Below are positions 1,526 to 45,198 of a stretch of DNA of 46,131 bases, one piece after another. The stretch covers positions 1-46,131 of the forward strand of contig SIAQ01000029.1 of assembly GCA_009697105.1 (NCBI GenBank), in the 5' to 3' direction. The DNA is from Gemmataceae bacterium (GTDB lineage Bacteria > Planctomycetota > Planctomycetia > Gemmatales > Gemmataceae). Positions within the stretch are counted from its first letter, which is position 1. Each line of letters starts with the position of its first letter. The position numbers were made by a program, and so were the translations under genes. The notes below the pieces were generated by a model that made no database searches, had not been told where the DNA came from, and saw only the letters and a program-made list of their open reading frames with translations.

Positions 1526-1607
1526 CAAGCCCCAGGATGAGCGCAGCGATTCCTGGGGGTTCGGGCGGTGCTACCCCCAGGAATCGCTGCGCTCATCCTG
1601 GGGCTTG
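1526..1607. repeat. Palindromic element A1 (REPIN-like), between hslV and hslU
   Basis: Arms 1526-1560 and 1573-1607 are perfect 35-bp inverted copies around a 12-base spacer. Each arm is also a hairpin, with CCCCAGGA pairing TCCTGGGG across a 13-base loop. Other copies are at 13256-13338 (two arms) and 36067-36101 (one arm, inside ileS). It starts six bases after the hslV stop codon and ends at the first base of the hslU Shine-Dalgarno, so the hslVU mRNA would carry a long hairpin there. Confidence 0.95.
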
Positions 1608-1613
1608 CCTGTT

Positions 1614-2150
1614 TTATTCAATCACTTCAACTTCGATATTCCGATTGGTATAGATGCACAGATCGCCCGCAATATCCAGCGACGTCTTGACGATCTCGCT
1701 GGCCTTCAGCGTCGAATGCATCGTCAGGGCCTTCGCGGCGGCCAAGGCATACGCACCGCCCGAACCAATGGCGGCGATGCCGTCGGTCGGTTGAATGACG
1801 TCGCCTGTGCCCGACACGAGCAGCATATGCTCGCGATCGACGGCGATCATCATCGCTTCGAGTCGGCGCAGGGCGCGATCGAGCCGCCAATCTTTTGCAA
1901 GTTCCGTGGCGGCACGAGGCACGCTGCCCTGGAAATCTTTAAGTTTCGCCTCAAAGCGCTCCATCAAGGCAAACGCATCCGCCGAGGAACCGGCGAATCC
2001 GACGAGCACCTTGCCGCCGTGCAGGCGACGGATTTTGTGGGCATCGCTCTTCATCACGATCTGCCCGAGCGTGACCTGACCATCGCCGCCAATGGCCGTG
2101 ACACCCTGATGCCTGACGGCGAGGATAGTAGTAGAGCGCATACGTTGCAT
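1614..2150 (-). CDS. hslV: ATP-dependent protease proteolytic subunit HslV
   Basis: Threonine peptidase that forms the double-ring chamber of HslUV in the cytoplasm. The protein has the usual length of about 178 residues. It contains TTILAVRH, whose first Thr would become the N-terminal nucleophile after a short leader is removed, followed by GGDGQVTLG and [10 protein letters not shown], all HslV signatures. ATG 2150 and ATG 2141 are both possible starts; 2141 would give the leader MRS seen in related proteins. It precedes hslU and is presumably co-transcribed, with element A1 between them. Confidence 0.97.
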
Positions 2151-2179
2151 GAAGTGCTACCTGTTCTTTTGTGCACATG

Positions 2180-2205
2180 CCGCTTGCGGCTTAGCGCTCG
2201 CAAGC
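2180..2205. repeat. Palindromic element C1, single arm
   Basis: One arm of family C. The arm is itself a hairpin, with GCTTGCG pairing CGCAAGC around a TTAGCG-type loop. Full two-arm copies are at 6143-6200, 8272-8328 and 32042-32098, and another single arm at 10224-10242. It lies in the divergent region between hslV and the TPM-domain gene; the rest of that 246-base gap shows no motif I can name. Confidence 0.85.
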
Positions 2206-2396
2206 ACCAATCCGCATGAAAATTCAACGCAGGAACAACCGTCCAATTGCGTTCCGGGACGCTTCCATTGTATAGGACAATTTCGGCAATTGGACTCGTT
2301 TGCCCTTTTCAATTGTGGTTTTCGCGCGAATAATAGAGTATCATGAACGAATAATAGGACGAGTGATTGAGAAACCCGTTCACCCGGAGATATCCC

Positions 2397-3512
2397 ATGT
2401 TCCATGCAGCATACAAAGTCGGACTGGCCGCGTTGCTTGTAGGAGCGTTTCTCGTTACGAGCGATGCCCAAGCCCAGGACAAGCACCGGCAGGTGCAGGA
2501 CGATGCAGGCCTATTCAGTAAGGAAGCCAAGGACCAGGCGAACAAGGTCATTGCCGATATATTTGCCAAGCACAACAAAGAATTGGTTATCGAAACGGTG
2601 AAGACATCGCCCGTAGCGCCAGAAGTAAACAAAGAAGAACGCGATAAATGGGCCATGGAGCGATTCAATAAACGCGGGGTTGACGGGGTATACGTCGTGT
2701 TCTGCAAGGAACCTTCGTTTTACCGAATTCGCGTTGGCAACGAGACGCGGAAAACCTATTTCACGAAACAGGAAATTTCTGAGCTCGAGACGATTATCAA
2801 CGAACATCTCAAGAAGGACCATGATCTCACCTTGACGAAGATGGTCGGTTACGTGGGAGACACGATTACTACGAACGCGCCCGCAAAGGTTGCGAAGCAG
2901 CCCAAAGCAGTGGGGAACCCCGTACAACAAAAAGCGCCTGGCGCACCGGTGCATAATCCCGTGCGAGCGAAAAACGTGGAGGAGAAAGGTATGCCATCCT
3001 GGGTAGGTTGGGTCTGTCTGATCGTCGGCGTTCTGGTCGTCGTTTGGGTGATCTTCGCGATCATCCGCTCCATGACGGGCATGATGGGCGGCGGCGGTTA
3101 TGCCGGCGGTGGCGGCGGCGGCGGCATGATGGGCGGTGGCGGTGGTGGCTTCCTCACCGGCATGCTCGGCGGTATGTTCGGCGCCATGGCCGGCATGTGG
3201 ATGTACAACAACTTCTTCGGCGGACATGCCAACTATTCCACCGGCGACTGGGGCGGCGGCCATAACCAGGGCGATAAGCAAGGCGATTTCGGCGATAAAG
3301 AAGGTGGCGAAAAAGGCGACTACAAAGGCGACACCGATAACGACGCCGGCGGTGGTGGTGACGACGACGCGGGTGGCGGCGGCGGTGGTGGTGATTGGGG
3401 TGACGCTGGCGGCGGTGGAGCCGGTGATGCCGGCGGTGGAGGTGGTGACGCCGGCGGTGGTGGCGGCAGCGGGTGCGGCGGCGCCGGCTGTGGCGGTGGT
3501 GGTGGCGACTGA
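2397..3512 (+). CDS. TPM-domain membrane protein with Gly-rich tail
   Basis: The start is ATG 2397, with GGAGA seven bases upstream, rather than the earlier ATG of the same frame. The 371-residue protein has a signal peptide (cleavage likely after AQA, near residue 26) and a TPM (DUF477, YgcG-type) domain of about 120 residues. A variable linker leads to a transmembrane segment (WVCLIVGVLVVVWVIF). The last third is glycine-rich, interrupted by a GDKQGDFGDKEGG-type stretch, and ends in a CGGAGCGGGGGD tail with two cysteines. TPM proteins are envelope proteins linked to photosystem repair in plants and of unclear role in bacteria. The Gly-rich tail is common in YgcG relatives. No functional partner is adjacent. 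Confidence 0.85.
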   Translation: MFHAAYKVGLAALLVGAFLVTSDAQAQDKHRQVQDDAGLFSKEAKDQANKVIADIFAKHNKELVIETVKTSPVAPEVNKEERDKWAMERFNKRGVDGVYVVFCKEPSFYRIRVGNETRKTYFTKQEISELETIINEHLKKDHDLTLTKMVGYVGDTITTNAPAKVAKQPKAVGNPVQQKAPGAPVHNPVRAKNVEEKGMPSWVGWVCLIVGVLVVVWVIFAIIRSMTGMMGGGGYAGGGGGGGMMGGGGGGFLTGMLGGMFGAMAGMWMYNNFFGGHANYSTGDWGGGHNQGDKQGDFGDKEGGEKGDYKGDTDNDAGGGGDDDAGGGGGGGDWGDAGGGGAGDAGGGGGDAGGGGGSGCGGAGCGGGGGD

Positions 3513-3523
3513 CGAAACTTCCT

Positions 3524-3613
3524 CAAGCCCAGGGGTGAGGTGCTCCGAACCCCTCGGATGAACGTATCCTGGAATTGATCCCAGGGGTTCGGGGTGCCTC
3601 ACCCCTGGGCTTT
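3524..3613. repeat. Palindromic element B1 (two arms)
   Basis: Family B element, 12 bases after the TPM gene stop and 13 before the HIT start. The consensus arm is CAAG, then CCCAGGGG pairing CCCCTGGG around a 14-base loop TGAGGTACTCCGAA. This copy has several arm mismatches, so it looks older than the others. Confidence 0.9.
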
Positions 3614-3625
3614 TGATTTACTCCC

Positions 3626-5007: not shown

Positions 5008-5019
5008 CCGCGCGGTGGA

Positions 5020-6096: not shown

Positions 6097-6142
6097 AGTG
6101 GGCGAAGGAGATAACACGCGAAGCGCGATGCGTCAAGGGGAG

Positions 6143-6200
6143 TTCCGCTTGCGGCTTAGCGCTCGCAAGCCGCCTTGCGAGCGCTAAGCCGCAAGCGGAA
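6143..6200. repeat. Palindromic element C2 (perfect two-arm copy)
   Basis: Arms 6143-6169 and 6174-6200 are perfect 27-bp inverted copies around four bases. Each arm is a hairpin (GCTTGCG with CGCAAGC). It begins three bases beyond the stop codon of the M50 gene. Confidence 0.95.
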
Positions 6201-6203
6201 AGG

Positions 6204-7082: not shown

Positions 7083-7103
7083 TTGCGGAGGCTCCGAAAT
7101 TCG

Positions 7104-7139
7104 ATCCCAGGGGTTCGGAGTACCTCACCCCTGGGCTTG
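7104..7139. repeat. Palindromic element B2 (right arm; left arm decayed)
   Basis: One intact family B arm just upstream of the M50 gene. A degraded remnant of the other arm (GAGGCTCCGAA at about 7088-7098) lies beside it. The next 30 bases hold a short direct repeat of CAATCnGCAATCAT. Confidence 0.85.
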
Positions 7140-8271: not shown

Positions 8272-8328
8272 TTCCGCTTGCGGCTTAGCGCTCAGAGTGT
8301 TCCACGCGAACGCTAAGCCGCAAGCGGC
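8272..8328. repeat. Palindromic element C3 (two arms)
   Basis: Family C element between the thioredoxin-like gene stop (8337) and the hydrolase start. The outer 20 or so bases of each arm pair well and the centre has diverged. Confidence 0.9.
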
Positions 8329-8336
8329 AGGTCTGG

Positions 8337-8897: not shown

Positions 8898-8939
8898 GGG
8901 TATCTCCTTGGGAATCATTTTATTGGACGCGACGCTTTT

Positions 8940-9034
8940 GTTTAGCCGCTCGCCTTGGGCGAGCGCGGAATTTTGTGTGTCGTCATCGTCCGCCAATCGC
9001 CAGGTTCACACTCGCCAAAGGCGAGCGGCTAAAC
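8940..9034. repeat. Palindromic element D (two arms)
   Basis: The outer arms GTTTAGCCGCTCGCCTT (from 8940) and AAGGCGAGCGGCTAAAC (9018-9034) are inverted copies. Each arm carries its own short hairpin, GCTCGCC/GGCGAGC on the left and CTCGCC/GGCGAG on the right, with three-base loops. The thiolase stop codon (TAG, 9029-9031) lies inside the right arm. Confidence 0.85.
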
Positions 9035-10207
9035 AAGCTCGACAAGCATCGCCACGGCGTTGCCACCGCCGAGACACAGCGATGCCAGACCACGGCGGAG
9101 GCCGCGTTGTTGCAGAGCGTGAACGAGCGTCACCAGCACGCGCGTGCCGGACGCGCCGATCGGATGGCCGAGCGCGATGGCGCCGCCGTTGACGTTGAGT
9201 TTCGCTTCGTCGATGGCGAGGTCTTTGTTGCAGGCGAGCATCTGCGCGGCGAAGGCTTCGTTTAACTCGAAGAGGTCGATGTCGGCGATCGCGAGCTTGG
9301 CTTTGTCGAGCACCTTGCGAACGGCTCCGACTGGTGCGAGGAAGATGTCCTTCGGCGCGATGCCGCTCGTGGCGTAGGCGACGATGCGTGCCAATGGCTT
9401 GACGCCAAGTTTGTCGAGGCCGTGTGCCGACACCACCGCAACGGATGCGGCGCCATCGGAGAGCGTGGAGGCATTGCCTGCGGTGACTGTGCCGTCGGGT
9501 CGAAACGCCGGCCTCAGTTTCGCCAGCGTATCGGTTGTCGTATCGGCACGGAAGCCTTCGTCCTGCGCGACCGTCTTCGCCTTCGCTCCAGTGCCAATCG
9601 TGATCGGCAGCACTTCGGCATTGAACGCGCCGGACTGCCAGGCCTTTGCCGCACGCTGTTGGCTGGCGGCGGCGAAGCGATCTTGCTCGCCGCGCGGGAT
9701 GCCGCATTTGGTCGCAATGTGTTCCGCCGCCTCGCCCATGTGCCAATTTTCGATCGCGCACCAAAGACCGTCGTGGATCATCGCATCGACGGCTTTTTGG
9801 TCGCCGATTTTCCACCCGCCGCGTGTGCCGAGCAAGAGGTGTGGTGCCCGGCTCATCGATTCCATGCCGCCGGCGAGAATGACATCGGCATCGCCCGCGC
9901 GGATCGCCTGAGCCGCCAGCATCACCGCTTTCAAGCCGGAACCGCAGACCTTGTTGATGGTCAGTGCAGCGATTGTGTCGGGCAGTCCCGCCTTGAGCGC
10001 GGCTTGGCGTGCGGGATTTTGGCCCAGGCCGGCTTGCAACACCGCACCCATGATGACTTCATCAACTACCGATGGCGCGATGCCGGCTCGTTTCATCGTC
10101 TCGGCCAACACGCGCCCGCCGAGCTCCGGCGCGGACATGTCAGCGAGGGCGCCAAGATACTTGCCGATCGGCGTGCGAACCGCGGAGGCGACATATGCTT
10201 CCGACAT
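9029..10207 (-). CDS. Acetyl-CoA acetyltransferase (thiolase)
   Basis: Condenses two acetyl-CoA to acetoacetyl-CoA, or cleaves 3-ketoacyl-CoA. The protein has 392 residues with the canonical catalytic set: Cys88 in NKVCGSG, His348 in GHPIGASG and Cys378 in CLGGG. MSRAPHLL and LINKVCGSGLKA-type segments match the biosynthetic (PhaA/AtoB) type. There is no beta-oxidation or PHB gene beside it, so its pathway is open. It ends inside repeat D, which supplies its stop codon. Confidence 0.95.
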   Translation of the reverse strand: MSEAYVASAVRTPIGKYLGALADMSAPELGGRVLAETMKRAGIAPSVVDEVIMGAVLQAGLGQNPARQAALKAGLPDTIAALTINKVCGSGLKAVMLAAQAIRAGDADVILAGGMESMSRAPHLLLGTRGGWKIGDQKAVDAMIHDGLWCAIENWHMGEAAEHIATKCGIPRGEQDRFAAASQQRAAKAWQSGAFNAEVLPITIGTGAKAKTVAQDEGFRADTTTDTLAKLRPAFRPDGTVTAGNASTLSDGAASVAVVSAHGLDKLGVKPLARIVAYATSGIAPKDIFLAPVGAVRKVLDKAKLAIADIDLFELNEAFAAQMLACNKDLAIDEAKLNVNGGAIALGHPIGASGTRVLVTLVHALQQRGLRRGLASLCLGGGNAVAMLVELV

Positions 10208-10223: not shown

Positions 10224-10242
10224 TTCCGCTTGCGGCTTAGCG
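10224..10242. repeat. Palindromic element C4, partial single arm
   Basis: The first 19 or so bases of a family C arm. The MFS gene stop codon (TAA, 10237-10239) lies inside it. Confidence 0.8.
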
Positions 10243-11556
10243 ATCGCCCTCACGGCGCCGCGGCCAAAAGAACACAATCGCACAGCACGCGATCGCCGGC
10301 AGGAGACCCGCGATAATCACAGGTCCCTGGTAGGATCCCGTCGTGTCGATGATACGGCCCACGAAGATCTGCATCGTCCCTGAGCCGATCCAGGCGATCA
10401 TGCCGAGCATGCCGGATATCTTGCCTTGATGCTTGGGCGACAATTCCTGCGAGAACGAATAGTAGTTGGGAAACAAACCCAGCGTACCGGCGGCAACGAA
10501 GAGGAGCAGCGCGAGGATGGTCATCGAGCCGACGGAAAAAAATCCATTCTCCGACACATTCGCCGACGGCAAGCACGCCACGATCACCGCAAGCAACGTC
10601 ATACCTGCGCAGGCCGAAAACGTCAACACGCGGGCAGTGTGAACGCCCCAGCCTCGCCTCGTCATGTCGGTCACCCAGAACCCGACGCCAAGACAACCGA
10701 TGTCGGTGGCAACATAGTACGCCGACGTAAACCACGCCATGCCTTGATCGTCGTAGCCGTGTTTCTCTTGCAAGAACAACGGGAGCCAAACGCGAAAATA
10801 TTGCCAGGTCAGATTGATGCAGATTACGGTGGCGATCAGCACGCCAAGCATCCGAAGAAAGTCACCGCTCCAGATTACCGGTGACCCATCAACGGAGGTC
10901 TCGCTTCCCGCTACGTCGGCTGTCCGCTGCAGATCGGTACGGCCAATCAACAGGAACCACGGCACGACCCAAAGGATCCCGATACAGCCAATGACGGCGA
11001 ACGGTGGACGCCAACCTCCAGGTTCGGCCGACGTCGTGTAGAGCACAATGATCGGCGTGAGAATCGAACCGAGGGCGGCTCCGCTTTGCAGCAAGCTATT
11101 GCCTAGCGACCGGTCGGCTCGCGAAAGCATCACCTGCGTCGTGACCAGAGCACAAGGCCAATGGCCCGATTCAAAGAAACCAAGCGAGATTCGGCAGAGC
11201 ATGAAGCCGAGGTAGGTTTGATCCGCGAGCGACGCTTCGGGCCTAAACCAGGCGCCGATCGAATCGGAATAGGCGGTCGCCAATCCGGCGAGCGACCAAA
11301 GGACCAGAACGCCGGGATACAACCAGCGCGGGCCGATGCGATCCACGAGAAAGCCGAAGAAGAAAGCGCCGCCTGCGAAGGCGTAGCTCAGGCCGGCGTC
11401 AAGCCCGCCGTACTGTTCGTTGCTGAAACCATATTCGTCCTTGATGCGCTTCGCCAGCACCGATAGCGTGAGGCGATCCATGTACAGCAACATGGTGGCG
11501 CACAGCAACAATCCGCAAACGCTGTAGCGCCATGTCGTGGATCGTTCATTTTGCAT
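10237..11556 (-). CDS. MFS transporter (anion:cation symporter-like)
   Basis: Inner-membrane transporter, 439 residues with about 12 hydrophobic helices. The N-terminal pattern (LLYMDRLTLSVLAKRIKDEYGFSNEQYG) and CRISLGFFESGHWPCA resemble the ACS family, whose members carry hexuronates, tartrate, phthalate or similar organic anions. The substrate is not predictable here. It starts 21 bases after the FG-GAP gene stop, suggesting co-transcription. The stop codon is drawn from repeat C4. Confidence 0.9.
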   Translation of the reverse strand: MQNERSTTWRYSVCGLLLCATMLLYMDRLTLSVLAKRIKDEYGFSNEQYGGLDAGLSYAFAGGAFFFGFLVDRIGPRWLYPGVLVLWSLAGLATAYSDSIGAWFRPEASLADQTYLGFMLCRISLGFFESGHWPCALVTTQVMLSRADRSLGNSLLQSGAALGSILTPIIVLYTTSAEPGGWRPPFAVIGCIGILWVVPWFLLIGRTDLQRTADVAGSETSVDGSPVIWSGDFLRMLGVLIATVICINLTWQYFRVWLPLFLQEKHGYDDQGMAWFTSAYYVATDIGCLGVGFWVTDMTRRGWGVHTARVLTFSACAGMTLLAVIVACLPSANVSENGFFSVGSMTILALLLFVAAGTLGLFPNYYSFSQELSPKHQGKISGMLGMIAWIGSGTMQIFVGRIIDTTGSYQGPVIIAGLLPAIACCAIVFFWPRRREGDR

Positions 11557-13224: not shown

Positions 13225-13255
13225 GGAATTATCCAAGTAGGAGTGAAACTCGGTT

Positions 13256-13338
13256 CAAGCCCCAGGATGAGCGCAGCGATTCCTGGGGGTTCGGCGTATT
13301 CTCACCCCCAGGAATCGCTGCGCTCATCCTAGGGCTTG
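13256..13338. repeat. Palindromic element A2 (two arms)
   Basis: Arms 13256-13290 and 13304-13338 are 35-bp inverted copies with one mismatch. The left arm is identical to that of A1. It lies between the PQQ propeller stop and the FG-GAP gene start. Confidence 0.95.
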
Positions 13339-13348
13339 AGTGGTTTGC

Positions 13349-14581: not shown

Positions 14582-14630
14582 GTGAAACTCCGGTATGTGG
14601 CTCTGCGCCACCGATGTGGAAATGGGCAGG

Positions 14631-14713
14631 CAAGCCCAGGGGTGAGGTACTCCGAACCTCTGGGATTTTACGGAATCATCCCAGGGGTTCGGAGTACCTC
14701 ACCCCTGGGCTTG
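14631..14713. repeat. Palindromic element B3 (two arms)
   Basis: Near-perfect family B element between the VWA gene stop and the PQQ gene start. Confidence 0.93.
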
Positions 14714-14748
14714 CCTCAACATCCACAACTTTGGCGGCTAAACAGGGA

Positions 14749-16149: not shown

Positions 16150-16219
16150 CTTTTTGAATCGAATCCGTTATACTTCGCAGGGTAGAAATTGTCTTTTTTT
16201 CCGAACCGATCAGAACATT

Positions 16220-16300
16220 TCCGAGCCGCGACCGTAAGGGAGCGGCCGACAGGATGCCGTGCGGATTATGTCGGCCGCTCCCTTACGGTCGCGGCTCGGA
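16220..16300. repeat. Palindromic element E (perfect arms)
   Basis: Arms 16220-16249 and 16271-16300 are perfect 30-bp inverted copies around 21 bases. Each arm contains a GCCGC/GCGGC stem around a loop with CCGTAAGGG. It lies in the gap between the PP2C fusion gene stop and the VWA gene start, 20 bases from the former. No other copy is in the window. Confidence 0.93.
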
Positions 16301-16319
16301 AAAGCGTCAAACTCACCCG

Positions 16320-18128
16320 TCAAAGGTACACCTTGATAATCACACACGAGATATTGTCGCCGAATCCGTCCGGCTCCAACACGCTAGGCAAACGCTGCAT
16401 GGCGTCGGCGGCGTTGACGAGCGACAACGCAATATCAGCGGCTTTCGCGGATTGCATGTTGCGCACCATGGCGGCGGCGTTGTGAGGCTCCAGGAAGTAA
16501 CCCTCCTCGATCAAGCCATCCGAGCACAACATTACCACATCGCCCGGCAGCAGTGGCCAGCGTGATACCTTCGGCTTGCAGTATTCGGCGAGAATCGCGA
16601 GTTCGCCTCGTTCATTCACGATGCAGCCGCCGACGCATTCACGCAAGGAACGCGAGACGCTACCGAGTTCGTGAATCTCCTCCGGCGATGCTCCGTTGGC
16701 CAGCAGATCGGAGGCGACATCGCCGTCCACTGTCAGCTGCTCGATCGCGTCCTTCGTGATGAGATACGCTCGGCTATCGCCCAAATTCGCGATGCTGAGT
16801 TCGTGTCCCTGCAACCAGGCGATTGTGAGCGTCGTGCCCATCAGGTTTTCGCCCGCGCGAAGCTCATCGCCGCTCCCGTGCGCGAGCGCCCATTCGAGCA
16901 AGCCCTGGGAGCTTTGTCGGGCGGCATCGCTCACGAGCCTCGCGAACGTTTCATGGGTACAGCCCTCGATAAACGCGTTCTCGACGACGATCGACGTTAT
17001 CATGCTCGCCAACCCGCCCGATCCGACGTCACATGTGGAGACTCCGTCGGCAACGACCGCCAGCAGGCCGCGCTCGTCCGCTTTGACGAGAATGGCGTCC
17101 TCGTTGTTGCGCTGGAGTTCCGTCTTCGATCGGCCCGTGCGGGTATGTCCGTCGGCATCCGAACGCAGCGTTCCCGAAAACGTTCGCCGACGATTCACGC
17201 CGACAATCGCCTCGTCGAAGGCCTGAGCGAACGCCAGGGGCGTGGGAAATCGTAGCCCTGGGTTCAATGCCGTGCCACGCTGTATCACCGGAATGATGCC
17301 CGTTGGCAGGCGTGGCGTGAAGATACGCAGCGGCGGAATCTCGTACCGAAACGCCTCCAGCCCGTTGCCAGGGAACCCACCGGGAATCAGGCCTGCGAGC
17401 CAATAATACGCAAGCATCGCCAGGTGGAACACGTCTGTCGCCGGGCCGATCTCATTCCCCAAAAATTGTACGATCTCCGGAGCGGCGTAATGCGGGTGAA
17501 TGCGCACACGTTCGGGCATCATTCGCGATGGGAAGAGTTCGAGGTCAAGGTTCGTGATTCGCAGCCAGCGCCAGTCCGCCGAGGTCGAATCATTCACCGA
17601 GGGCGACAGCGGGCCTATATCCTCCATCATCGACGGATTGAAGTTCAGCCAGACCAACCCGCGTTCATGGAGCAAGGAAAGGGCATGGGCGACGGAGTGG
17701 ACGCATGCCGAAAGCCTCTGAAGCTCGGCGAGGTCGTCCTTCGCTTTCGGGAGTTGCCAGGGCAGTGGCGTGGACAGATTGGTATCGAAGATTAACCAGC
17801 GGCCCTGACTATCGTCCACCACGCGGCCTTTCGGCAGGCACGCAGCTTGGGTCGCCAGGCGTTCCTCCAGCAATGCGACACGCTCGGCGGGCAACTTGTC
17901 AGGCAGCCAATGCACGCGCCAGCTTTGACCTTCGGCGGTAAGCGTCAGAGCCGACTCCGGAAAAGCCAACGCTTGCCGTTGTTCCGTGGACAGCGCGAGA
18001 CCTGCGGACGTAACCGGGCAAACCGCCGGCGGCGGACTCGGCGCCGCCGACGCCAATTCGGCATTGCAATGATCGCAGAACTCATGATCCTGCGACATCT
18101 CGCCACATACGTTGCACTGGATGCTCAT
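16320..18128 (-). CDS. Zinc ribbon-pseudokinase-PP2C phosphatase fusion
   Basis: 602 residues, cytoplasmic. Residues 1-25 form a zinc ribbon (C5xxC8, C18xxC21). Residues about 60-310 look like a protein-kinase fold whose catalytic loop has decayed. LHERGLVWLNFNP at 153-165 replaces HRDLKP with WLNFNP, DFG is replaced by LDLE near 194, and no VAIK lysine or glycine loop is clear. The structural APE (A216-P-E218) and the helix-F Asp (TDVF, D232) remain. Residues about 335-602 form a PP2C phosphatase with its metal-binding motifs intact: NNEDAILV, VADGVS (D361-G362), GDSRAY, LCSDGL and GDNIS. It probably dephosphorylates Ser/Thr, with the dead kinase as a sensing or scaffolding domain. The VWA gene lies next downstream. 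Confidence 0.88.
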   Translation of the reverse strand: MSIQCNVCGEMSQDHEFCDHCNAELASAAPSPPPAVCPVTSAGLALSTEQRQALAFPESALTLTAEGQSWRVHWLPDKLPAERVALLEERLATQAACLPKGRVVDDSQGRWLIFDTNLSTPLPWQLPKAKDDLAELQRLSACVHSVAHALSLLHERGLVWLNFNPSMMEDIGPLSPSVNDSTSADWRWLRITNLDLELFPSRMMPERVRIHPHYAAPEIVQFLGNEIGPATDVFHLAMLAYYWLAGLIPGGFPGNGLEAFRYEIPPLRIFTPRLPTGIIPVIQRGTALNPGLRFPTPLAFAQAFDEAIVGVNRRRTFSGTLRSDADGHTRTGRSKTELQRNNEDAILVKADERGLLAVVADGVSTCDVGSGGLASMITSIVVENAFIEGCTHETFARLVSDAARQSSQGLLEWALAHGSGDELRAGENLMGTTLTIAWLQGHELSIANLGDSRAYLITKDAIEQLTVDGDVASDLLANGASPEEIHELGSVSRSLRECVGGCIVNERGELAILAEYCKPKVSRWPLLPGDVVMLCSDGLIEEGYFLEPHNAAAMVRNMQSAKAADIALSLVNAADAMQRLPSVLEPDGFGDNISCVIIKVYL

Positions 18129-18225
18129 CGCGGAGGTTCGCCTCGCAGATTGGGTGTGGGATTAGTGTATGTTGCGAAAGGGGAGAGTTGGAAGAAAAAA
18201 CGCCGCGCGGTTGTGGAAAAAAACT

Positions 18226-18294
18226 CAAGCCCAGTGGTGAGGTACTCCGAAACCTTGGGATCCCAGCGGTTCGGAGTACCTCACCAATGGGCTT
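18226..18294. repeat. Palindromic element B4 (two arms, shortened)
   Basis: Family B element with the central spacer nearly gone and some outer mismatches (CCAGTGG/CCAATGG). It lies upstream of the PP2C fusion gene. Confidence 0.9.
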
Positions 18295-18332
18295 TCATCA
18301 AATTCCACAACTCTGGCGCACTGCTTAATTTT

Positions 18333-21127: not shown

Positions 21128-21203
21128 AGGATTCCTCCAGTCGCTTACGCTCCTGGCTCGCCGGATCATCCCAGCCCCTCCACCACGTCGCCGTACACGT
21201 CAA
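21128..21203. repeat. Single-arm palindrome G' with a duplicated gene-end fragment
   Basis: A repeat arm (TCCAGTCGCTTACGCTCCTG, from about 21137) is followed about 15 bases later by CTCCACCACGTCGCCGTACA. The same pair occurs at 21928-22003, where the second part is the 3' end of the DUF1501 gene. On the minus strand it would read DVYGDVVEGLG and a stop, compared with DVHGDVVEAVLI. It may be a remnant of a second DUF1501-type gene or of a shared mobile segment. Confidence 0.6.
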
Positions 21204-21927: not shown

Positions 21928-21961
21928 GGGTTCCTCCAGTCGCTTACGCTCCTGGCTCGCC
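21928..21961. repeat. Palindromic element G', single arm
   Basis: One arm with the stem CCAG/CTGG around TCGCTTACGCT-type bases. It ends three bases before the DUF1501 stop codon. It is related in sequence to elements F (27601-27661) and G (42911-42995). Confidence 0.8.
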
Positions 21962-21964: not shown

Positions 21965-23446
21965 TCAGATTAGCACCGCCTCCACCACGTCGCCGTGCAC
22001 GTCGGTTAGCCGATACGCCCGGCCCTGGAAGCGATACGTCAAGCGCGTGTGGTCGATGCCGAGCAAGTGCAGGATCGTCGCCTGGAAGTCGTAGGCACTG
22101 ACCGGGTTCTCGACGACGTTGTACGCGAAGTCGTCGGTGCGGCCATAGCTCATGCCGGGCTTGATGCCGCCGCCGGCCATCCACAGGCTGAAGCAGCGGC
22201 CATGATGATCGCGGCCGAACCTTGGCTGCGTGTAGTCGCCTTGCACGAACACCGTGCGGCCAAACTCGCCGCCCCAGATGACGAGCGTGTCATCGAGCAT
22301 GCCGCGTTGCTTCAGGTCCTTCACCAGCGCCGCCGACGGTTGATCGGTATCGCGGCACTGGATCGCGAGTTGTGTCGGCAGGTTGTTGTGCTGGTCCCAG
22401 CCGGCGTGCATCAGGTGTACGAAACGCACGCCGCGCTCCGCCATGCGGCGAGCCATCAGGCAGTTCCACGCGAAGCTGCCGCGCCGCTCAACATCGGGGC
22501 CGTACATTTCGAGCACTCGGCGAGGCTCGTTGGAGAAGTCGGTCAACTCAGGAACCGATGTCTGCATGCGGTACGCCATCTCGTACTGCGAGATGCGTGT
22601 CTGGATTTCAGGATCGCCGGTCTCCTGGTGCCGCATGCGATTCAGCTCCGCGAGATCATCAAGTTGGCTGCGGCGAACCTGCGGCGTCACGCCCTGCGGG
22701 TTCGAGAGATAGAGCACCGGATCGCCGTTCGAGCGCAGCTTGACGCCTTGATAGCTCGAGGGCAGGAAGCCGGAACCCCAGTAATAGTCGTAAAAGATCT
22801 GCCCGCACGAAAGCTCGCGATCTTGCGATGTCATGACGACAAACGTCGGCAGATCGCGATTCATGCTGCCCAGGCCATAGCTCAGCCAGGCACCCATGCT
22901 CGGCCTGCCCGGCTGCTCGGCGCCGGTAAGGAACAGCGTGACAGCGGGAGCGTGGTTGATCGCATCGGTGTGCATCGAGCGGATGACGCAGATATCGTCG
23001 GCGATCGACCCCGTGTGCGGCAGGAAATCGCACAGCCACTGCCCGCTGCGGCCCCACTGCCGAAACGGCGCGATGCCAGGCAGCACGAGTTGCCTTTGGT
23101 TCGTCGTCATGGTCGTGAGGCGCTGCCCCATTTGCACGGAAGGCGGCAGCAGTTCGCCCCGCCAGCGATAGATGTTGGGTTTGTAGTCAAACAGATCGAC
23201 ATGCGTCGGCGCCCCGGTCTGCATGAGATAGATGACGCGCCGAGCCTTCGCAGGGTGGTGCATCCCGTCCGAGCCTGATCGCCAGCGAAGGGCATCTGTG
23301 GGCCCCGCTTGCCCTTCGCTGGCGATCAGGCTCGGACTCCCATCGTTCAGCAGCGACGACAGCGCCGCCAATCCAAGCGTGCCACTAACGCCAGTGAGAA
23401 ACTGGCGACGGGTTTGGTTGAGAGCGTACTGGAGGTTGGGATTCAA
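21965..23446 (-). CDS. DUF1501 (sulfatase-like) Tat-exported protein carrying an inserted palindrome
   Basis: 493 residues. The chosen start is TTG 23446, with AAGGA about eight bases upstream; it gives MNPNLQYALNQTRRQFLTG, the usual DUF1501 opening with a twin-arginine signal. Family landmarks follow: HHPAKARRVIYLMQTGAPTHVDLFDYKP, then GGGIKPGMSYGRTDDFAY and ILHLLGIDHTRLTYRFQGR. DUF1501 proteins are alkaline-phosphatase-fold proteins typical of planctomycetes, usually beside a DUF1549/DUF1553 cytochrome gene, which is absent here. Residues about 37-60 (GSPSLIASEGQAG and neighbours) are encoded by a perfect palindrome and look like an in-frame insertion. Confidence 0.9.
   Translation of the reverse strand: MNPNLQYALNQTRRQFLTGVSGTLGLAALSSLLNDGSPSLIASEGQAGPTDALRWRSGSDGMHHPAKARRVIYLMQTGAPTHVDLFDYKPNIYRWRGELLPPSVQMGQRLTTMTTNQRQLVLPGIAPFRQWGRSGQWLCDFLPHTGSIADDICVIRSMHTDAINHAPAVTLFLTGAEQPGRPSMGAWLSYGLGSMNRDLPTFVVMTSQDRELSCGQIFYDYYWGSGFLPSSYQGVKLRSNGDPVLYLSNPQGVTPQVRRSQLDDLAELNRMRHQETGDPEIQTRISQYEMAYRMQTSVPELTDFSNEPRRVLEMYGPDVERRGSFAWNCLMARRMAERGVRFVHLMHAGWDQHNNLPTQLAIQCRDTDQPSAALVKDLKQRGMLDDTLVIWGGEFGRTVFVQGDYTQPRFGRDHHGRCFSLWMAGGGIKPGMSYGRTDDFAYNVVENPVSAYDFQATILHLLGIDHTRLTYRFQGRAYRLTDVHGDVVEAVLI
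23268..23338. repeat. Palindromic element H inside the DUF1501 gene
   Basis: Arms 23268-23295 and 23311-23338 are perfect 28-bp inverted copies around 15 bases, wholly within the reading frame. The 71 bases plus one flanking base equal 24 codons, which keeps the frame open. It lies after the Tat signal and before the conserved HHPAKARR segment. Confidence 0.93.
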
Positions 23447-23485
23447 TTCAATATCCTTCCGGTTTAACAAGCAGAAAATGCAATC

Positions 23486-26309: not shown

Positions 26310-26388
26310 TCAGAGCCACGCACGAAGTATGTGGTTTGATCGCACGGTGTTTTCAAATTCAAACCGCTTACTTCGTGCGAGGCTCTGA
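26310..26388. repeat. Palindromic element J (two arms)
   Basis: Arms 26310-26339 and 26359-26388 are inverted copies of about 30 bases with a few mismatches. Each arm contains a short stem, such as CCAC/GTGG in the left arm. The right arm encodes the last six codons and the TAA stop of the ribbon-helix-helix gene. Confidence 0.88.
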
Positions 26389-27501: not shown

Positions 27502-27600
27502 AGCAGCCCCTTTTAAATTGGAATCGATTCGATATGTTTATGATATCGCTTTGGTATCTCGAAGTCAAGCGCGTCTTCCTCGTTCCCCAACAGGCCGCTT

Positions 27601-27661
27601 AACGAGCCGGAAGCGTAAGCGACGGATTGGCGAAATCCGTCGCTTACGCTTCCGACTCGTT
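27601..27661. repeat. Palindromic element F (two arms)
   Basis: Arms 27601-27628 and 27634-27661 are 28-bp inverted copies with one mismatch and a five-base spacer. The sequence AGCGTAAGCGAC relates it to elements G and G'. It lies between the divergent SPFH and WD40 genes. Confidence 0.92.
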
Positions 27662-27741
27662 ATTTTGTTGTCCACGCAATCCTCCAGCGTCTATACTCAG
27701 GAGTAGGTTTCGGGATTCGCGAACTCAACGTGAGGACCAAC

Positions 27742-30870: not shown

Positions 30871-31334
30871 GGTATGATTTCCCCAGATAGCTCGTCATTT
30901 ATGGCGGGTATGTAGCCGAACCCGCCATATACGGCGGGCCCTAAGAGGGGCCATGGATTGCCGACTTCCCAAGAACGGCCCTCATGAGGTATACTGCGAT
31001 AGGAAATACTTTCGGTTCAGGTGAGGAATGATGGCAACGAAAATCACCACCGAAATGCGCCAGCGAGTCTCTTGGCCTATTCGCTGACGCTTGTGCTTGA
31101 CAAGTTGGCCGTCGCGACCGATCGTGGCATATCGAAGCCATCTCGCTCTGTTTGATGGTTTCTCATCGGCACGATGCGATAAACTGAGAGTTCGTTGCAA
31201 TCGATCCATGCAGAGCGAAATGGCTACGGTGGCTGGGTGCGCCAATTGGGGGAACGATTCGCCATCGATTTGCGTCCAAAGTGCAGTCAAATGATTCGAT
31301 CTTGATCTGATTCCCTATTGCGAGGTAGTTCACC
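30871..31334. other. 464-base gap between the WD40 and TRASH-like genes
   Basis: TGGCGGG (30902-30908) can pair with CCCGCCA (30921-30927), which can also pair with GGCGGG (30933-30938): overlapping alternative hairpins just past the WD40 stop, possibly a terminator. A tiny ORF at 31031-31087 (MATKITTEMRQ, with GTGAGG before it) resembles the start of a small planctomycete antitoxin but stops after 18 codons, so it may be a remnant. I recognise nothing else here. Confidence 0.45.
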
Positions 31335-32041: not shown

Positions 32042-32098
32042 TTCCGCTTGCGGCTTAGCACTCGGAACATCCCGCTCGAGCGCTAAGCCGCAAGCGGA
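32042..32098. repeat. Palindromic element C5 (two arms)
   Basis: Family C element between two converging genes, 8 bases after the TRASH-like gene stop and 4 bases before the stop codon of the FHA gene. It could terminate both transcripts. Confidence 0.92.
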
Positions 32099-32102
32099 GT
32101 AC

Positions 32103-34379: not shown

Positions 34380-34590
34380 CCCAATACCCTCTTTCGCCGA
34401 GCTTATTCGTATACGATTCATTCATCGGCGAAAATCGGTAGGTCGGTTGAACCAGGAAAAAAAATTGGCAAAGCTGGTAAAGTCAGCCCATTCGTCTTAT
34501 CCGAAAAGGCAAGCGGGGCAGATTGGGAGATTCGTCACAAAGGCTTGCAGAACGGCATTTGGACGGCTACGTTCTATTGCATGGAATCGA

Positions 34591-34671
34591 AAGCCCAGAG
34601 GTGAGGTACTCCGAACCTCTGGAATGATTCCGTAAGATCCAGCGGTTCGGAGTACCTCACCCCTGGGCTTG
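34591..34671. repeat. Palindromic element B5 (two arms)
   Basis: Family B element between the small membrane-protein gene stop and the FHA gene start. The flanking 34380-34590 shows no ORF I trust. Confidence 0.93.
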
Positions 34672-35239: not shown

Positions 35240-35262
35240 TCGCGCGATCCTGAATGATTTCC

Positions 35263-35329
35263 AAGCCCGCGGGCGACGAAGGAGCCTGCGCGGGTCGTAC
35301 CCCGCAGGCTCCTTGTCGCCTGCGGGCTT
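35263..35329. repeat. Palindromic element I in the ileS leader
   Basis: Left arm 35263-35294 pairs with right arm 35301-35329 with a few mismatches. The right arm alone forms a strong hairpin, CCCGCAGGC with GCCTGCGGG around eight bases. It lies between the likely promoter and the ileS start (17 bases from the ATG). No T-box motif is seen. Confidence 0.88.
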
Positions 35330-35345
35330 ACCTCGAGGTTGCACG

Positions 35346-38927
<3,582 letters not shown>

Positions 38928-38942
<15 letters not shown>

Positions 38943-39018
38943 GGTAATCCGAACCCCTGGGATCATTCATCGGCAGATGTCTATCCCAAGGGTTCGGATT
39001 ACCTCACCCCTGGGCTTG
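38928..39018. repeat. Palindromic element B6 (two arms), supplies ileS stop
   Basis: Family B element overlapping the ileS 3' end. The CAAGCCCAGGGGTGA start encodes the terminal QAQG and the TGA stop. Both arms differ from the family consensus at the same paired position (GTAATCC / GGATTAC rather than GTACTCC / GGAGTAC). Confidence 0.93.
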
Positions 39019-39036
39019 CATTGGAGCAATCCAATC

Positions 39037-39516
39037 ATGAACCTGCTCGACGAATTCCTGGCCATCATCACGCAGCTGGGCGACGCCAAAATCCCCTACG
39101 CCATCTGCGGCGGTTGGGCGTTGGCGATCCACGGCGTGCCACGATTCACGATGGACATCGATTTGCTGGTCAGGCCGGAGGATTTTCAAAATGTGCTCGC
39201 CATCGCTGTTAAATCCGGATTCGATGCCGCGGTTGAATCGTTGTCGCTCGTGCAAATCGATGGCTCGCGCTGCGAAGTTCGCCGTCTGAACAAATTCGAC
39301 GGCAATGACCATACCGTGTTCGACGTGATCCTGGCCCAAGATTCGCTCGAACCCATTTGGGCGAGCCGTGAGATTTTTGCGTGGCAAGGTCGGCAGCTTC
39401 CGGTCTGCTCGGCCATCGGTTTGGCGCGCATGAAACGCCTCGCCAGCCGGCCACAGGACCTGGTCGATATTCAATCCTTGGGCTTCGACATCAATGACCC
39501 CGCCATCCAACCCTGA
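39037..39516 (+). CDS. Nucleotidyltransferase-fold protein (MNT/AbiEii-like)
   Basis: 159 residues. The nucleotidyltransferase core is visible: ICGGWALAIHG near the N-terminus, then RFTMDIDLLV carrying the paired Asp residues, and VFDVILAQ with a third Asp. A helical tail contains LARMKRLASRPQDLVDIQSL, typical of these stand-alone enzymes. Some relatives are toxins or antitoxins that add nucleotides to RNA or protein. ATG 39037 is chosen because the longer frame comes from palindrome B6. A small ORF follows and may be a partner. Confidence 0.85.
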   Translation: MNLLDEFLAIITQLGDAKIPYAICGGWALAIHGVPRFTMDIDLLVRPEDFQNVLAIAVKSGFDAAVESLSLVQIDGSRCEVRRLNKFDGNDHTVFDVILAQDSLEPIWASREIFAWQGRQLPVCSAIGLARMKRLASRPQDLVDIQSLGFDINDPAIQP

Positions 39517-39688: not shown

Positions 39689-39736
39689 ACATGGTTAGAT
39701 ATTCTCCAACTACCATTTCTGAATCGGAGAACTTTC

Positions 39737-41638: not shown

Positions 41639-41667
41639 TTCGATCGACGGCGCTGATTTGTTAACCA

Positions 41668-41749
41668 AAGCCCAGGGGTGAGGTACTCCGAACCCCTGGG
41701 ATATGCCGCAACATCCCAAGGGGTTCGGAGTACCTCACCCTTGGGCTTG
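41668..41749. repeat. Palindromic element B7 (two arms)
   Basis: Near-perfect family B element between the converging DUF1559 and aldolase genes, 6 bases from the aldolase stop. It is a plausible bidirectional terminator. Confidence 0.94.
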
Positions 41750-41755
41750 AATGGC

Positions 41756-42826: not shown

Positions 42827-42910
42827 TGCAAAATCCTTAAGAAAGTTGTTGATTTTTGAAGATTATAGTGATTTCCCACTTCTTTTCTCGTTTGGCGTGC
42901 GTGCGTTTTG

Positions 42911-42995
42911 GTGAGCCGAGAGCGTCAGCGACTGAAGCGTGCGCGACCTTTCACGTCGGGTGATGTCCTCCCGTCGCTGACGCTCCCGGCTTGCC
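42911..42995. repeat. Palindromic element G (two arms)
   Basis: GAGCCGAGAGCGTCAGCGA (from about 42913) pairs with TCGCTGACGCTCCCGGCTTG (42974-42993), with mismatches and a spacer of about 40 bases. It lies between the divergent aldolase and recD2 genes, 15 bases before the recD2 ATG. Confidence 0.85.
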
Positions 42996-43010
42996 AGATA
43001 CAATGCCGCC

Positions 43011-45176
43011 ATGAGCGCCTCCCTTTCCGGTACCATTGATCGCGTTACGTTTCACAATCCTGAGAACGGCTACGTCGTCTTGCGCGTCGAGGTCAAGGGG
43101 CTGCGCATGCCGGTCACCGTCGTTGGGCAGACGCCAAGGGCGAATGCGGGGGAGTTTGTCGAAGCGGTCGGCACGTGGGTGGACGATCCCGATTTTGGCA
43201 AGCAGTTCAAGGCCGACACAATACGCGTGCTGCCGCCGAGCACGGTTGAAGGCATCGAGAAATATCTTGGCTCCGGGCTGATCAAAGGTATCGGGCCGAC
43301 CTATGCTCGCAAGATCGTCGAGGTCTTCGGTGCTCGCACGCTTGACGTGATCGACGAAAGCCCGACCTATCTGAAAGAGATCAAAGGCATCGGCTCGCGG
43401 CGCATCCAACAGATTCGCGAAAGCTGGCGACGGCAGAAGGCCGTGCGCGACATCATGGTGTTTCTCCAGTCGCATGGCGTCGGCACGGGGCATGCCTTTC
43501 GCATCTGGCGGACGTATGGCGATCGGGCACTCGAAGTCGTCAAAGCGAATCCGTACACGCTCGCTGCGGAGGTCTGGGGCATCGGCTTCCCGACGGCGGA
43601 TCAACTCGCACTCAAGCTCGGCTTCGCGCCGGACGCCCAACCGCGTGCTCAGGCGGTCGTTCGGCATCTGCTCGGCGAGAAGTCCGGCGAAGGCCATGTC
43701 GCCTTCCCGGAGGCTGCGCTGTTGCACGATTGCGTGCAAGCGACTGGCATCGCGGAGCCGATCCTGCGTGAGGCGGCGGCGGCGCTGGTGCAAGCGGGCG
43801 AGATCATCCGCGAGTCGGCGCTGACGCCCGAACCGTGGCTGTATCTGCGAGAGATGCACGCCGCCGAGGTGCAGATCGCAATACGATTGCAGGAGCTGGC
43901 ATGTGGTGAGCATCCGCTGCCGGCGTTCGATCTCGACAAGGCGTTGACCTGGGTCGAAGGCAAGATCGGCCTGGCCCTGGCTCACAACCAGCGAGAGGCA
44001 ATTCGGCAAGCGTGCACTGCCAAGGTGCTCGTCATCACCGGCGGGCCGGGCGTGGGCAAGACGACGCTGGTGCGCGGCATTCTCGAAATCTTCGCCGTCA
44101 AGGAGCTGCGCTGCGCCTTGGCCGCGCCGACCGGGCGAGCCGCCAAGCGCTTGAGCGAATCGACCGGGCGTGAGGCGAAGACGATCCACCGCTTGCTCGA
44201 ATACGATCACGGCGGCCCGAAGCGCAACGCGAACAACCCGCTCGATGTCGATCTGCTGATCATCGATGAGACATCGATGGTCGATGTGCCGTTGATGCAG
44301 CGATTGACGAGCGCCCTGCCCGCGAAGACGTGTTTGATCCTCGTGGGCGATGCCGATCAACTTCCGTCGGTCGGCCCCGGCTCCGTGCTGGCGGATGTTA
44401 TCGCGTCCAAGGCTGTGCCCGTCGTGCGATTGACGGAGATCTTCCGCCAAGCCCAGCAGAGCGGCATCGTGCGGGCGGCGTATCGCGTCCACGATGGCGA
44501 AATGCCCGAAACGACGCCGGCGGGCGCACTGGGCGACTTCTACATCATCGAAGCCGAGACGCCCGCCGCCATCCTTGAACGTGTGCTGACATTGGTGCGC
44601 GAGCGCATCCCCTCTCGCTTCAAGCTCGATCCGTTCCGCGACGTTCAAGTCCTCGCGCCGATGAATCGCGGTGACCTTGGCGTACGCAATCTCAACCTTC
44701 GACTGCAAGCCGTGCTCAACGCACCCGACGCTCAGGAGTCACCGGAGGTCGCGCGGTTCGGCTGGTCGTTCCGCGTGGGCGACAAGGTGCTGCAAACGCG
44801 CAACGACTATCAAAAGGAAGTCTTCAACGGCGACGTGGGCCGAATCAGCAAGATCGATGTCGATGAGCAAGAGATGACCGTTGAGTTCGATGGCCGAGCG
44901 GTGACGTATGAGTTTGACGATCTCGACGAGCTATCGCTGGCCTATGCGCTCACCGTGCACAAATCGCAAGGCAGCGAGTATCCCGCCGTCGTGATTCCGT
45001 TGCACACGCAGCATTACCTCTTACTCCAGCGGAACGTGCTCTACACCGCCCTGACGCGAGGCCGCAAGCTCGTCGTGCTCGTCGGCAACCGCAAGGCGAT
45101 CCAGATGGCGATTAGTCGAGCGGATGTGGCGCGGCGGTATTCGGCACTGAAGCAGCGATTGCAAGCCCAAGGGTGA
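43011..45176 (+). CDS. recD2: RecD2-type ATP-dependent DNA helicase
   Basis: 5'-3' superfamily 1B helicase acting in DNA repair, independent of RecBC. 721 residues. An N-terminal OB-like domain is followed by tandem helix-hairpin-helix-like segments (GLIKGIGPTYARKIVEVFG, EIKGIGSRRIQQI). Motor motifs then follow: Walker A GGPGVGKTT (near 344), IIDETSMVD, a QLPSVGPG loop, and a UvrD-type C-terminal piece YALTVHKSQGSEYP. Full length for the family. The terminal QAQG and TGA are contributed by palindrome B8, giving the same C-terminus as IleRS. Confidence 0.96.
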   Translation: MSASLSGTIDRVTFHNPENGYVVLRVEVKGLRMPVTVVGQTPRANAGEFVEAVGTWVDDPDFGKQFKADTIRVLPPSTVEGIEKYLGSGLIKGIGPTYARKIVEVFGARTLDVIDESPTYLKEIKGIGSRRIQQIRESWRRQKAVRDIMVFLQSHGVGTGHAFRIWRTYGDRALEVVKANPYTLAAEVWGIGFPTADQLALKLGFAPDAQPRAQAVVRHLLGEKSGEGHVAFPEAALLHDCVQATGIAEPILREAAAALVQAGEIIRESALTPEPWLYLREMHAAEVQIAIRLQELACGEHPLPAFDLDKALTWVEGKIGLALAHNQREAIRQACTAKVLVITGGPGVGKTTLVRGILEIFAVKELRCALAAPTGRAAKRLSESTGREAKTIHRLLEYDHGGPKRNANNPLDVDLLIIDETSMVDVPLMQRLTSALPAKTCLILVGDADQLPSVGPGSVLADVIASKAVPVVRLTEIFRQAQQSGIVRAAYRVHDGEMPETTPAGALGDFYIIEAETPAAILERVLTLVRERIPSRFKLDPFRDVQVLAPMNRGDLGVRNLNLRLQAVLNAPDAQESPEVARFGWSFRVGDKVLQTRNDYQKEVFNGDVGRISKIDVDEQEMTVEFDGRAVTYEFDDLDELSLAYALTVHKSQGSEYPAVVIPLHTQHYLLLQRNVLYTALTRGRKLVVLVGNRKAIQMAISRADVARRYSALKQRLQAQG

Positions 45177-45198
45177 GGTACTCCGAACCCTTGGGATC
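45162..45198. repeat. Palindromic element B8, single arm
   Basis: The left arm of family B, overlapping the recD2 end and providing its stop codon. The matching right arm is missing; unrelated sequence follows from about 45199. Confidence 0.9.

What the first reader, a model, noticed from the sequence alone, without database searches (positions are those of the whole stretch)
1526..45198. At least ten families of REPIN-like nested palindromes in 46 kb
Families A to K differ in sequence but most share one design: two arms of about 20-35 bases in inverted orientation, each arm itself a hairpin (for example CCCCAGGA/TCCTGGGG in A, CCCAGGGG/CCCCTGGG in B, GCTTGCG/CGCAAGC in C, GCTCGCC/GGCGAGC in D). 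Arms are often perfectly matched, which implies recent spread or arm correction. Several loops share an AGCG(T/C)(A)AGCGA-like core (A, F, G, G'). This fits REP doublets mobilised in trans by a RAYT (Y1 transposase), but none is encoded here. So many families side by side is unusual.
Basis: partly seen in the sequence, partly recalled or inferred. Interest (0 to 1): 0.85.

Follow-up and report, generated by a model that had tools for sequence, protein, structure and literature searches.

The report
Swarm of REPIN families in Gemmataceae
This bacterial genome is crowded with about a dozen families of tiny hairpin-shaped mobile repeats, many of them tied to their own kind of small transposase in this species or its relatives, and different families have taken over the same spots in sister species, even inside an essential gene.

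Summary
The window carries 43 repeat arms of 11 families, mostly head-out inverted pairs whose arms are hairpins. They are genome-wide: 609 arms of 16 families in 831 kb; the window is typical. None is in the window, but the same genome has a RAYT between family B arms and one between family E arms. RAYTs beside A, C, D, G or I arms occur in relatives.

New points. (1) Most feet are not GTAG but NNAG, sometimes NNCG; the second base follows RAYT clade. (2) A, C, D and the CGAG-type families have no detectable RAYT in this assembly: orphans, or a gap in a 92%-complete genome. (3) Different families occupy the same place in sister genomes: two sites with both flanks, a third at its left edge only. 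One is in frame in ileS, where 29 of 34 fetched genomes outside the genus have the short unoccupied loop. (4) Family G is the core of a 161-nt element.

New variant of a known kind.

The parts
1526..1607 (.). REPIN, family A (CAAG|CCCCAGGATGAGCGCAGCGATTCCTGGGG), between genes read as hslU and hslV; same family at the same place in sister genome G066
2178..2205 (+). single REP, family C; same in G066
3524..3613 (.). REPIN, family B (CAAG|CCCAGGGGTGAGGTACTCCGAACCCCTGGG); same in G066
6143..6200 (.). REPIN, family C; a family D REPIN stands at the same site in G066
7104..7139 (-). single REP, family B
8272..8329 (.). REPIN, family C
8938..9036 (.). REPIN, family D (TTTAG|CCGCTCGCC..GGCGAGCG)
10224..10247 (+). 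single REP, family C; same in G066
13255..13339 (.). REPIN, family A; same in G066
14628..14716 (.). REPIN, family B; no REPIN at this site in G066
16168..16328 (+). about 161-nt repeated element (TATACTTCG...AAGGTATA) that carries the family G REPIN (16218-16302, CCGAG|CCGCGACCGTAAGGGAGCGG) in its middle
18226..18295 (.). REPIN, family B
21131..21162 (-). single REP, family J (GCGAG|CCAGGAGCGTAAGCGACTGG)
21930..21961 (-). single REP, family J
23267..23337 (.). REPIN, family H (CCGAG|CCTGAGCGCCAGCGAAGGG), inside the reading frame 21965-23470
26310..26388 (.). REPIN, family I (CAGAG|CCGCGCACGAAGTAAGCGG)
27600..27662 (.). REPIN, family F (ACGAG|CCGGAAGCGTAAGCGACGG)
30886..30943 (.). weak REPIN, family P (ATAG|CCCGCCATTTATGGCGGG; 4 mismatches in each arm)
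32042..32099 (.). REPIN, family C; same in G066
34590..34671 (.). REPIN, family B; site rearranged in G066
35262..35335 (.). REPIN, family E (CAAG|CCCGCAGGCGACGAAGGAGCCTGCGCGGG; the model detects the left arm, the right arm was read by eye); same in G066
36067..36101 (+). single REP, family A, in frame inside the frame read as ileS (35313-38942); G066 has a family C REPIN at this place
38928..39018 (.). REPIN, family B, at the 3' end of ileS and supplying its stop codon; G066 has a TTTAGCCGCGACGCG REPIN at the same left edge, but its right flank differs
41667..41749 (.). REPIN, family B
42909..42996 (.). REPIN, F/J-like
45162..45197 (+). single REP, family B, overlapping the end of the reading frame 43011-45176 and supplying its stop codon

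Best explanation
The palindromes are REP sequences, mostly as REPINs (head-out inverted REP pairs), of many separate families living together in a planctomycete genome of the family Gemmataceae. Each REP is a hairpin preceded by an unpaired tetranucleotide, most often ending in AG, sometimes in CG. Y1 HUH transposases (RAYTs) of several clades each recognise one family, cut single-stranded DNA at the foot of the hairpin, and move or copy the doublet in trans. Shown: the families, their copy number, the RAYT-arm association, shared arm families of sister RAYTs across species, absence of several RAYTs from this assembly, and turnover at single sites between sister genomes. Inferred: that the RAYTs catalyse the movement, that the foot is the guide choosing the cut site, and that orphan families are leftovers of lost RAYTs rather than an assembly gap.
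For: Copy number and doublets. Fixed spacer length within families (10 nt in 54 of 62 C pairs, 17 nt in 13 of 16 G pairs). At 12 of 26 window sites no other copy in the sample matches more than 15 nt beyond the arms. RAYTs with HUH and Y motifs. Matching arms beside RAYTs. Sister RAYTs from different species carry the same arm family (B: L041/L044; E: L015/L043; D: L102/L104; C: L115/L116). Feet of 54 RAYT-linked families: last base G in 54, third base A in 47 and C in 7; second base T in 24 of 25 of clade N, A in 16 of 16 of clade Q4, G in 8 of 13 of clade c3. Mobility: occupied against unoccupied ileS loop and site comparison with G066.
Against: No RAYT tied to A, C, D, F, G, H, I, J or N arms was found in this assembly. 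If feet select a CT cut site, CT might stand at a fixed place beside AG-footed repeats; it does not do so consistently (best values G 0.44 upstream, H 0.34 downstream, F 0.26 upstream). F, H, J, N and P have no RAYT with identical arms in any genome examined. 6 of 66 RAYT loci have no nearby inverted repeat. At 14 of 26 window sites between 1 and 15 other hits run past the arms, in part coding similarity by eye. No excision or insertion was observed. Feet were read by eye by me; in clade c3 the stem start can be parsed in two ways (CCGA|G or CGAG|), and the tree program warned that the long branches of N and Q4 may join falsely.
Confidence: 0.87

Rival explanations
1. The palindromes are host regulatory or structural hairpins (transcription terminators, mRNA stabilisers) kept by selection, not mobile elements.
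For: Most lie between reading frames; several sit immediately at 3' ends (window 38928, 41667, 45162).
Against: Some lie between divergent frames (27600, 42909) or inside frames (23267, 36067). Arms match the transposase gene they lie beside. Sister genomes carry different families at the same site.
Confidence: 0.06
2. They are MITEs of ordinary DDE transposons.
Against: At 12 of 26 window sites nothing longer than the doublet is repeated, and HUH Y1 genes lie between matching arms. No parent transposon of the 161-nt element was looked for.
Confidence: 0.05
3. The many families and swapped sites are artefacts of metagenome assembly or binning.
For: The genome is a 187-contig assembly, 91.9% complete; repeats break assemblies.
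Against: Arm families A, B and an A-like one stand beside their RAYTs on contigs of three separately deposited assemblies (JACPZP010000036, SHZY01000079, CAMAUE010000078), whose contig lengths equal those of G029, G062 and G066. The two clean swapped sites lie between flanks 94-97% (36067) and 85-96% (6143) identical to G066.
Confidence: 0.03

Closest known systems
REPINs and RAYTs of Pseudomonas (Bertels and Rainey 2011, PMC3116915; seen in search listings only, features recalled)
   Same: Short palindromic arms in inverted doublets, high copy, a HUH Y1 gene per family lying between its own arms.
   Different: Most feet are NNAG or NNCG instead of GTAG; 16 families were modelled in one genome; several have no RAYT in the same assembly.
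TnpAY1 class 3 (Quentin et al. 2018, PMC6006769; passages read)
   Same: Found mainly in Planctomycetes, Acidobacteria and Proteobacteria; Y----Q motif; flanking hairpins with foot CnGA, up to about 600 copies. The c3 genes read here have Gln five residues after the Tyr and feet such as CCGA|G and CAGA|G.
   Different: That paper enlarged class 3 to 24 proteins; here feet within the clade also read CCAG, TGAG, GGAG, TTAG and CAAG, and two further clades (N and Q4) with other feet coexist in the genus. Its profile was not available, so membership is by motif.
GTAG- and CGTC-tagged palindromic repeats, intragenic REPs and TIRYTs (PMC3733652, 2013; abstract passage and other passages read)
   Same: Several families per genome, GTAG degenerate at positions 2 and 3 in some families, REPs inside genes including tRNA synthetases, a 'plethora' of such transposases in Rhodopirellula baltica.
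   Different: The foot here also varies at position 1, and its second base goes with RAYT clade; one ileS site holds different families in different species. Whether the Q4 genes are TIRYTs was not tested.
TnpAREP recognition determinants (PMC8266576, 2021; passages read)
   Same: That work proposes that A3G4 of the foot choose a CT cut, and for one enzyme only the last two foot positions were strongly selected on a CT substrate; a natural NNAG pattern would fit.
   Different: The E. coli enzyme tolerates no change of GTAG there. No bench data exist for the RAYTs here, and no fixed CT was found beside the repeats.

Membership tests
REPIN (REP doublet) | multi-copy short hairpin arms in inverted, head-out pairs with short spacer | tested here: met
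REPIN (REP doublet) | cognate RAYT lying beside or between the same arms | tested here: met
   own genome for B, E and a D-like family; relatives for A, C, D, G, I; not found for F, H, J, N, P
Canonical GTAG REP | 5' GTAG or GTGG foot | tested here: not met
   main families have CAAG, TTAG, CGAG, AGAG feet; minor families V, T, U in the genome begin GTAG or GTGG
RAYT / TnpAY1 | HUH motif and catalytic Tyr in a Y1_Tnp (PF01797) core | tested here: met
   L016 scores 19.3 bits, below Pfam's cut-off of 23, but is 57-58% identical to L013, which scores 23.4. All three own genes score far below the cut-off of NCBIfam's RAYT model (18-31 bits against 80)
RAYT / TnpAY1 | single copy per genome, not moving as an IS | tested here: met
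   own-genome searches return one copy each of the B, E and C41 genes
RAYT / TnpAY1 | cuts and rejoins its own REP as single-stranded DNA | not testable with these tools
   needs protein
TnpAY1 class 3 (Quentin 2018) | Y----Q motif and flanking hairpins with foot CnGA | tested here: inconclusive
   L188-L190 (the genes of L088, L072, L074) and L071, L073 have Gln at Tyr+5 and feet CCGA|G, CAGA|G or GCGAG; not compared with that paper's profile; other members of the clade have other feet
MITE (family G element only) | terminal inverted repeats, target-site duplication, parent transposon | tested here: inconclusive
   161-nt unit with short imperfect inverted ends TATAC/GTATA; duplication ambiguous; no parent searched
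Rickettsia palindromic elements | CGTC foot | tested here: not met
   no CGTC foot in the main families; one small local repeat pair begins CGTC (L023)

The most novel reading that the evidence does not exclude
RAYT-driven REPINs in this lineage exchange families at fixed places: a new REPIN lands on, or replaces, a resident hairpin of another family rather than a random site, so that permissive slots (including a loop of essential IleRS) are handed from family to family, while the guide foot NNAG/NNCG diversifies with RAYT clade and helps keep the families from cross-mobilising.
Probability: 0.3. Interest if true: 0.82.

Novelty: new variant of a known kind. Interest (0 to 1): 0.62.

Why it matters
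REP feet have mostly been described as GTAG or close to it. Here dozens of RAYTs in one bacterial family stand beside repeats with different feet, arranged by clade, which makes the guide-sequence model of cut-site choice testable on natural variants. The sister-genome comparisons show REP turnover at single sites, including in-frame exchange inside ileS, and a way to ask whether RAYTs target existing hairpins. The apparent orphan families let one ask how long REPINs persist without their transposase.

Tried and rejected
AGCC as a universal four-letter tag: rejected in favour of NNAG (or NNCG) before the stem, because family C arms do not begin with it and seven of the 54 feet read end in CG.

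Strong arm correction: within-pair divergence is only slightly lower than between-pair in most families. In four of the six same-family orthologous REPINs (those of equal length in G066), two columns changed in both arms and ended complementary (B at 3524, G at 16218) and six changed in one arm only. Undecided.

Fixed CT cut site beside AG feet: not found.

B REPIN nested in a larger repeat with empty copies (window 14.6 and 18.3 kb): only those two copies matched the flank pattern, no empty copy.

The search for related loci with two RAYT rows found only 3 loci; genome searches replaced it. Structure prediction was not run.

Rows dropped. One search took 66 loci by hand out of the Y1-type loci fetched; left out were duplicates, IS200-like or unclassified genes (L009-L011, L063-L067, L069, L070, L075-L077, L081-L083, L085, L086, L199), a decayed C-type copy (L079) and truncated or partial ones (L049, L057, L058). 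RAYT hits beyond the locus caps were not read. The tree dropped 12 of the 66: two canonical GTAG types and ten whose foot I could not or did not read. L103 was labelled TTAG although one side reads ATAG.

Full report
What is there. The window is contig C90 of a 5.44-Mb, 187-contig, 91.9% complete genome. Relatives in the named collection are planctomycete assemblies, one named Gemmataceae; contig lengths of SHZY01000079 and CAMAUE010000078 equal those of contigs of congeners G062 and G066. Gene names below (ileS, hslU, recD and so on) are my reading of the translations; no family search was run on them. With arm models for 16 families the window has 43 arms of 11 families. In 831,200 bp (window plus 40 stretches) there are 609 arms: C 170, B 102, D 52, F 47, H 40, G 33, A 30, I 29, T 21, N 21, P 17, U 15, V 10, E 9, L12 9, J 4. 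Scaled to the genome this is about 4,000 arms (inference; the sample is not random). Tight inverted repeats number 292 against 1-3 in five Markov-1 shuffles. The 24-nt B core has 395 genome-wide matches, reversed control 0. Thirty-seven overlapping 46-kb windows from six other contigs have 6-12 families, median 9, so the window is ordinary for its genome.

Anatomy. Each arm is an unpaired foot, then a hairpin: for example CAAG|CCCAGGGG...CCCCTGGG in B, TTTAG|CCGCTCGCC in D, CCGAG|CCGCGACC in G. In the sample, tail-tail neighbours number 1 in A and 0 in the other 11 families tested. Spacer length is family-specific (10 nt in 54 of 62 C pairs, 17 nt in 13 of 16 G pairs, 11-12 nt in 18 of 29 B pairs) and spacer sequence partly conserved in B, C, F, G and N. 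So the doublet looks like the unit. At 12 of 26 window sites no other copy matches more than 15 nt beyond the arms; at 14 sites between 1 and 15 hits do, in part coding similarity by eye, with G the clear case (14 of 36 hits). G is the middle of a 161-nt element with 15 matches over 110 nt in the sample and at least 39 copies in G066 besides the orthologous one (capped).

Transposases. PF01797 finds five Y1 genes in the genome at E <= 0.001. Two weak ones, at C41 and C33, have REPINs on both sides: TTTAG|CCGCGACGCGC at C41 and CAAG|CCCGCAGGC, the family of window 35262, at C33. A search with the C33 protein found a relative at C38 (58% identical) that lies between family B REPINs. In congeners and other genomes of the family, RAYTs lie beside A (L046, one side), C (L115, L116, one side), D (L104, both), G (L190, both) and I (L192, decayed, one side) arms and several others. 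Of 66 RAYT loci taken by hand, 60 have an inverted repeat within 260 nt on at least one side and 34 on both, 32 of those 34 of one family; random places have both in 6 of 300. AGCC stands within 14 nt of an arm end in 44 of 60 against 13 of 60 for reversed arms.

Clades and feet. A tree of 54 of the 66 RAYTs has three groups: N (Asn at Tyr+4 in 27 of 28 looked at), Q4 (Gln at Tyr+4 in 10 of 17 looked at) and c3 (Gln at Tyr+5 in the five genes read, like class 3 of PMC6006769); N and Q4 are each one side of a branch with SH-aLRT support 99, c3 with 35, and the program warns that the long branches may join falsely. The fourth foot base is G in 54 of 54, the third A in 47 and C in 7, the second T in 24 of 25 (N), A in 16 of 16 (Q4), G in 8 of 13 (c3). 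Feet were read by eye. Sister RAYTs of different species keep the same arm family in B, C, D and E. PMC8266576 (passages read) proposes that A3G4 of the foot select a CT cut and shows it for one enzyme by mutation; the natural NNAG pattern fits, and NNCG feet would predict another cut. Against this, no fixed CT was found beside the repeats.

Orphans. Searches with the A/B/E-type alignment (E up to 10), the C41 protein (E up to 1) and the c3 alignment (E up to 1e-5) find in this genome only the C33, C38 and C41 genes and a chance match. The six congeners give 2-7 matches each to the c3 alignment, 9 of the 20 rows with stops; three of the 20 are Q4 genes. C- and D-type RAYTs of congeners were picked up by the C41 protein. 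So A, C, D, F, G, H, I, J and N have no detectable RAYT here. Their between-copy divergence (0.075-0.163, eight families with pairs) overlaps that of B (0.134), E (0.081) and L12 (0.122), so they do not look older. An 8% assembly gap, with RAYTs embedded in repeats, remains a real alternative.

Turnover at fixed sites. REP A at 36067 is in frame in ileS. Among 34 fetched genomes outside the genus, 29 have one invariant 11-residue loop there (28 of 28 best-matching loci and G035), two hold a REPIN (G029, G043), and three have longer loops in which no repeat was detected (G028, G017, G002). By my count of the listing, 56 of 73 matched genomes have the unoccupied match length. All six genomes of the genus with a match (own included; G064 gave none) carry an insert at the same codon: A in G000, C in G066 and, decayed, G062, a CGAG-type REPIN in G063, and a CCCCTCCCC-type palindrome, by eye, in G065 and G061; outside the genus, C in G043 and an F-like REPIN in G029. 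Seven of these eight are in frame; G061 is not. G066 is close enough to compare window sites: of 18 tried (of 26), eight carry the same family (1526, 2178, 3524, 10224, 13255, 16218, 32042, 35262), two a different family with both flanks aligned (6143 C against D; 36067 A against C), one a different family at its left edge only, because the gene to its right in G000 is missing in G066 (38928, B against TTTAGCCGCGACGCG), one has no REPIN (14628), one is rearranged (34590), and five could not be compared (7104, 8272, 8938, 18226, 41667). Flank identities run from 80 to 99%. At 38928 both genomes use the REPIN for the ileS stop codon. Coincidence of different families argues for preferred or pre-occupied sites; whether by insertion into the resident hairpin, replacement, or a few permissive slots I cannot tell.

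Literature. In the rows listed by searches (20 of 63; 15 of 157; 11 of 11; 6 of 6; 5 of 5), of PMC open-licence papers only, I saw none on Gemmataceae REPINs, NNAG feet or family exchange at fixed sites. REPs inside genes, including tRNA synthetases, and many such transposases in Rhodopirellula baltica are in print (PMC3733652, passages read).

Verdict. It is a new variant of REPIN-RAYT systems, with foot diversity and turnover at fixed sites as the parts worth following.

Noticed in passing
16168-16328: Family G REPIN sits in a 161-nt element with TATAC...GTATA ends, at least 39 further copies in G066; looks like a MITE carrying a REPIN. Parent transposase not sought.
   Followed up: partly
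L018-L137, cluster starting AACCACAGAGGCACAGAG: A separate inverted-repeat family AACCACAGAG...CACAGAGAAAA (15 pairs in 831 kb), unlike the REPs in design, in the same genome.
   Followed up: no
L086 (G062:C37) and G061:C47: RAYT-like genes lie near ileS on the same contig in two congeners, one of them with stops; an inverted repeat GCTCGCTCGGCGGTTTCGCGCACAGCG lies upstream of ileS in G062, and similar ones in G061 and G065.
   Followed up: no
G000:C174 (L011): Decayed IS200-like tnpA with three stops, between AGCCCAGGG..CCCTGGG repeats.
   Followed up: no
14598-14737 and 18210-18320: Two B REPINs share flanking sequence ending TCCACAACTNTGGCG beyond their arms, as if inserted in or carried with another repeat; no empty copy found.
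   Followed up: partly
L015, L043 and L046, REPINs beside the RAYT: The REPINs next to E-type RAYTs and one A-type RAYT are head-in, although copies elsewhere in the genome are head-out.
   Followed up: no
21965-23470: A family H REPIN lies inside a reading frame, by eye between a signal region and the conserved part of a DUF1501-like protein (name recalled, no search).
   Followed up: no
38928-39516: The reading frame after the ileS-terminal REPIN (39037-39516) is missing at this place in G066, so a gene gain or loss has its edge at a REPIN.
   Followed up: no
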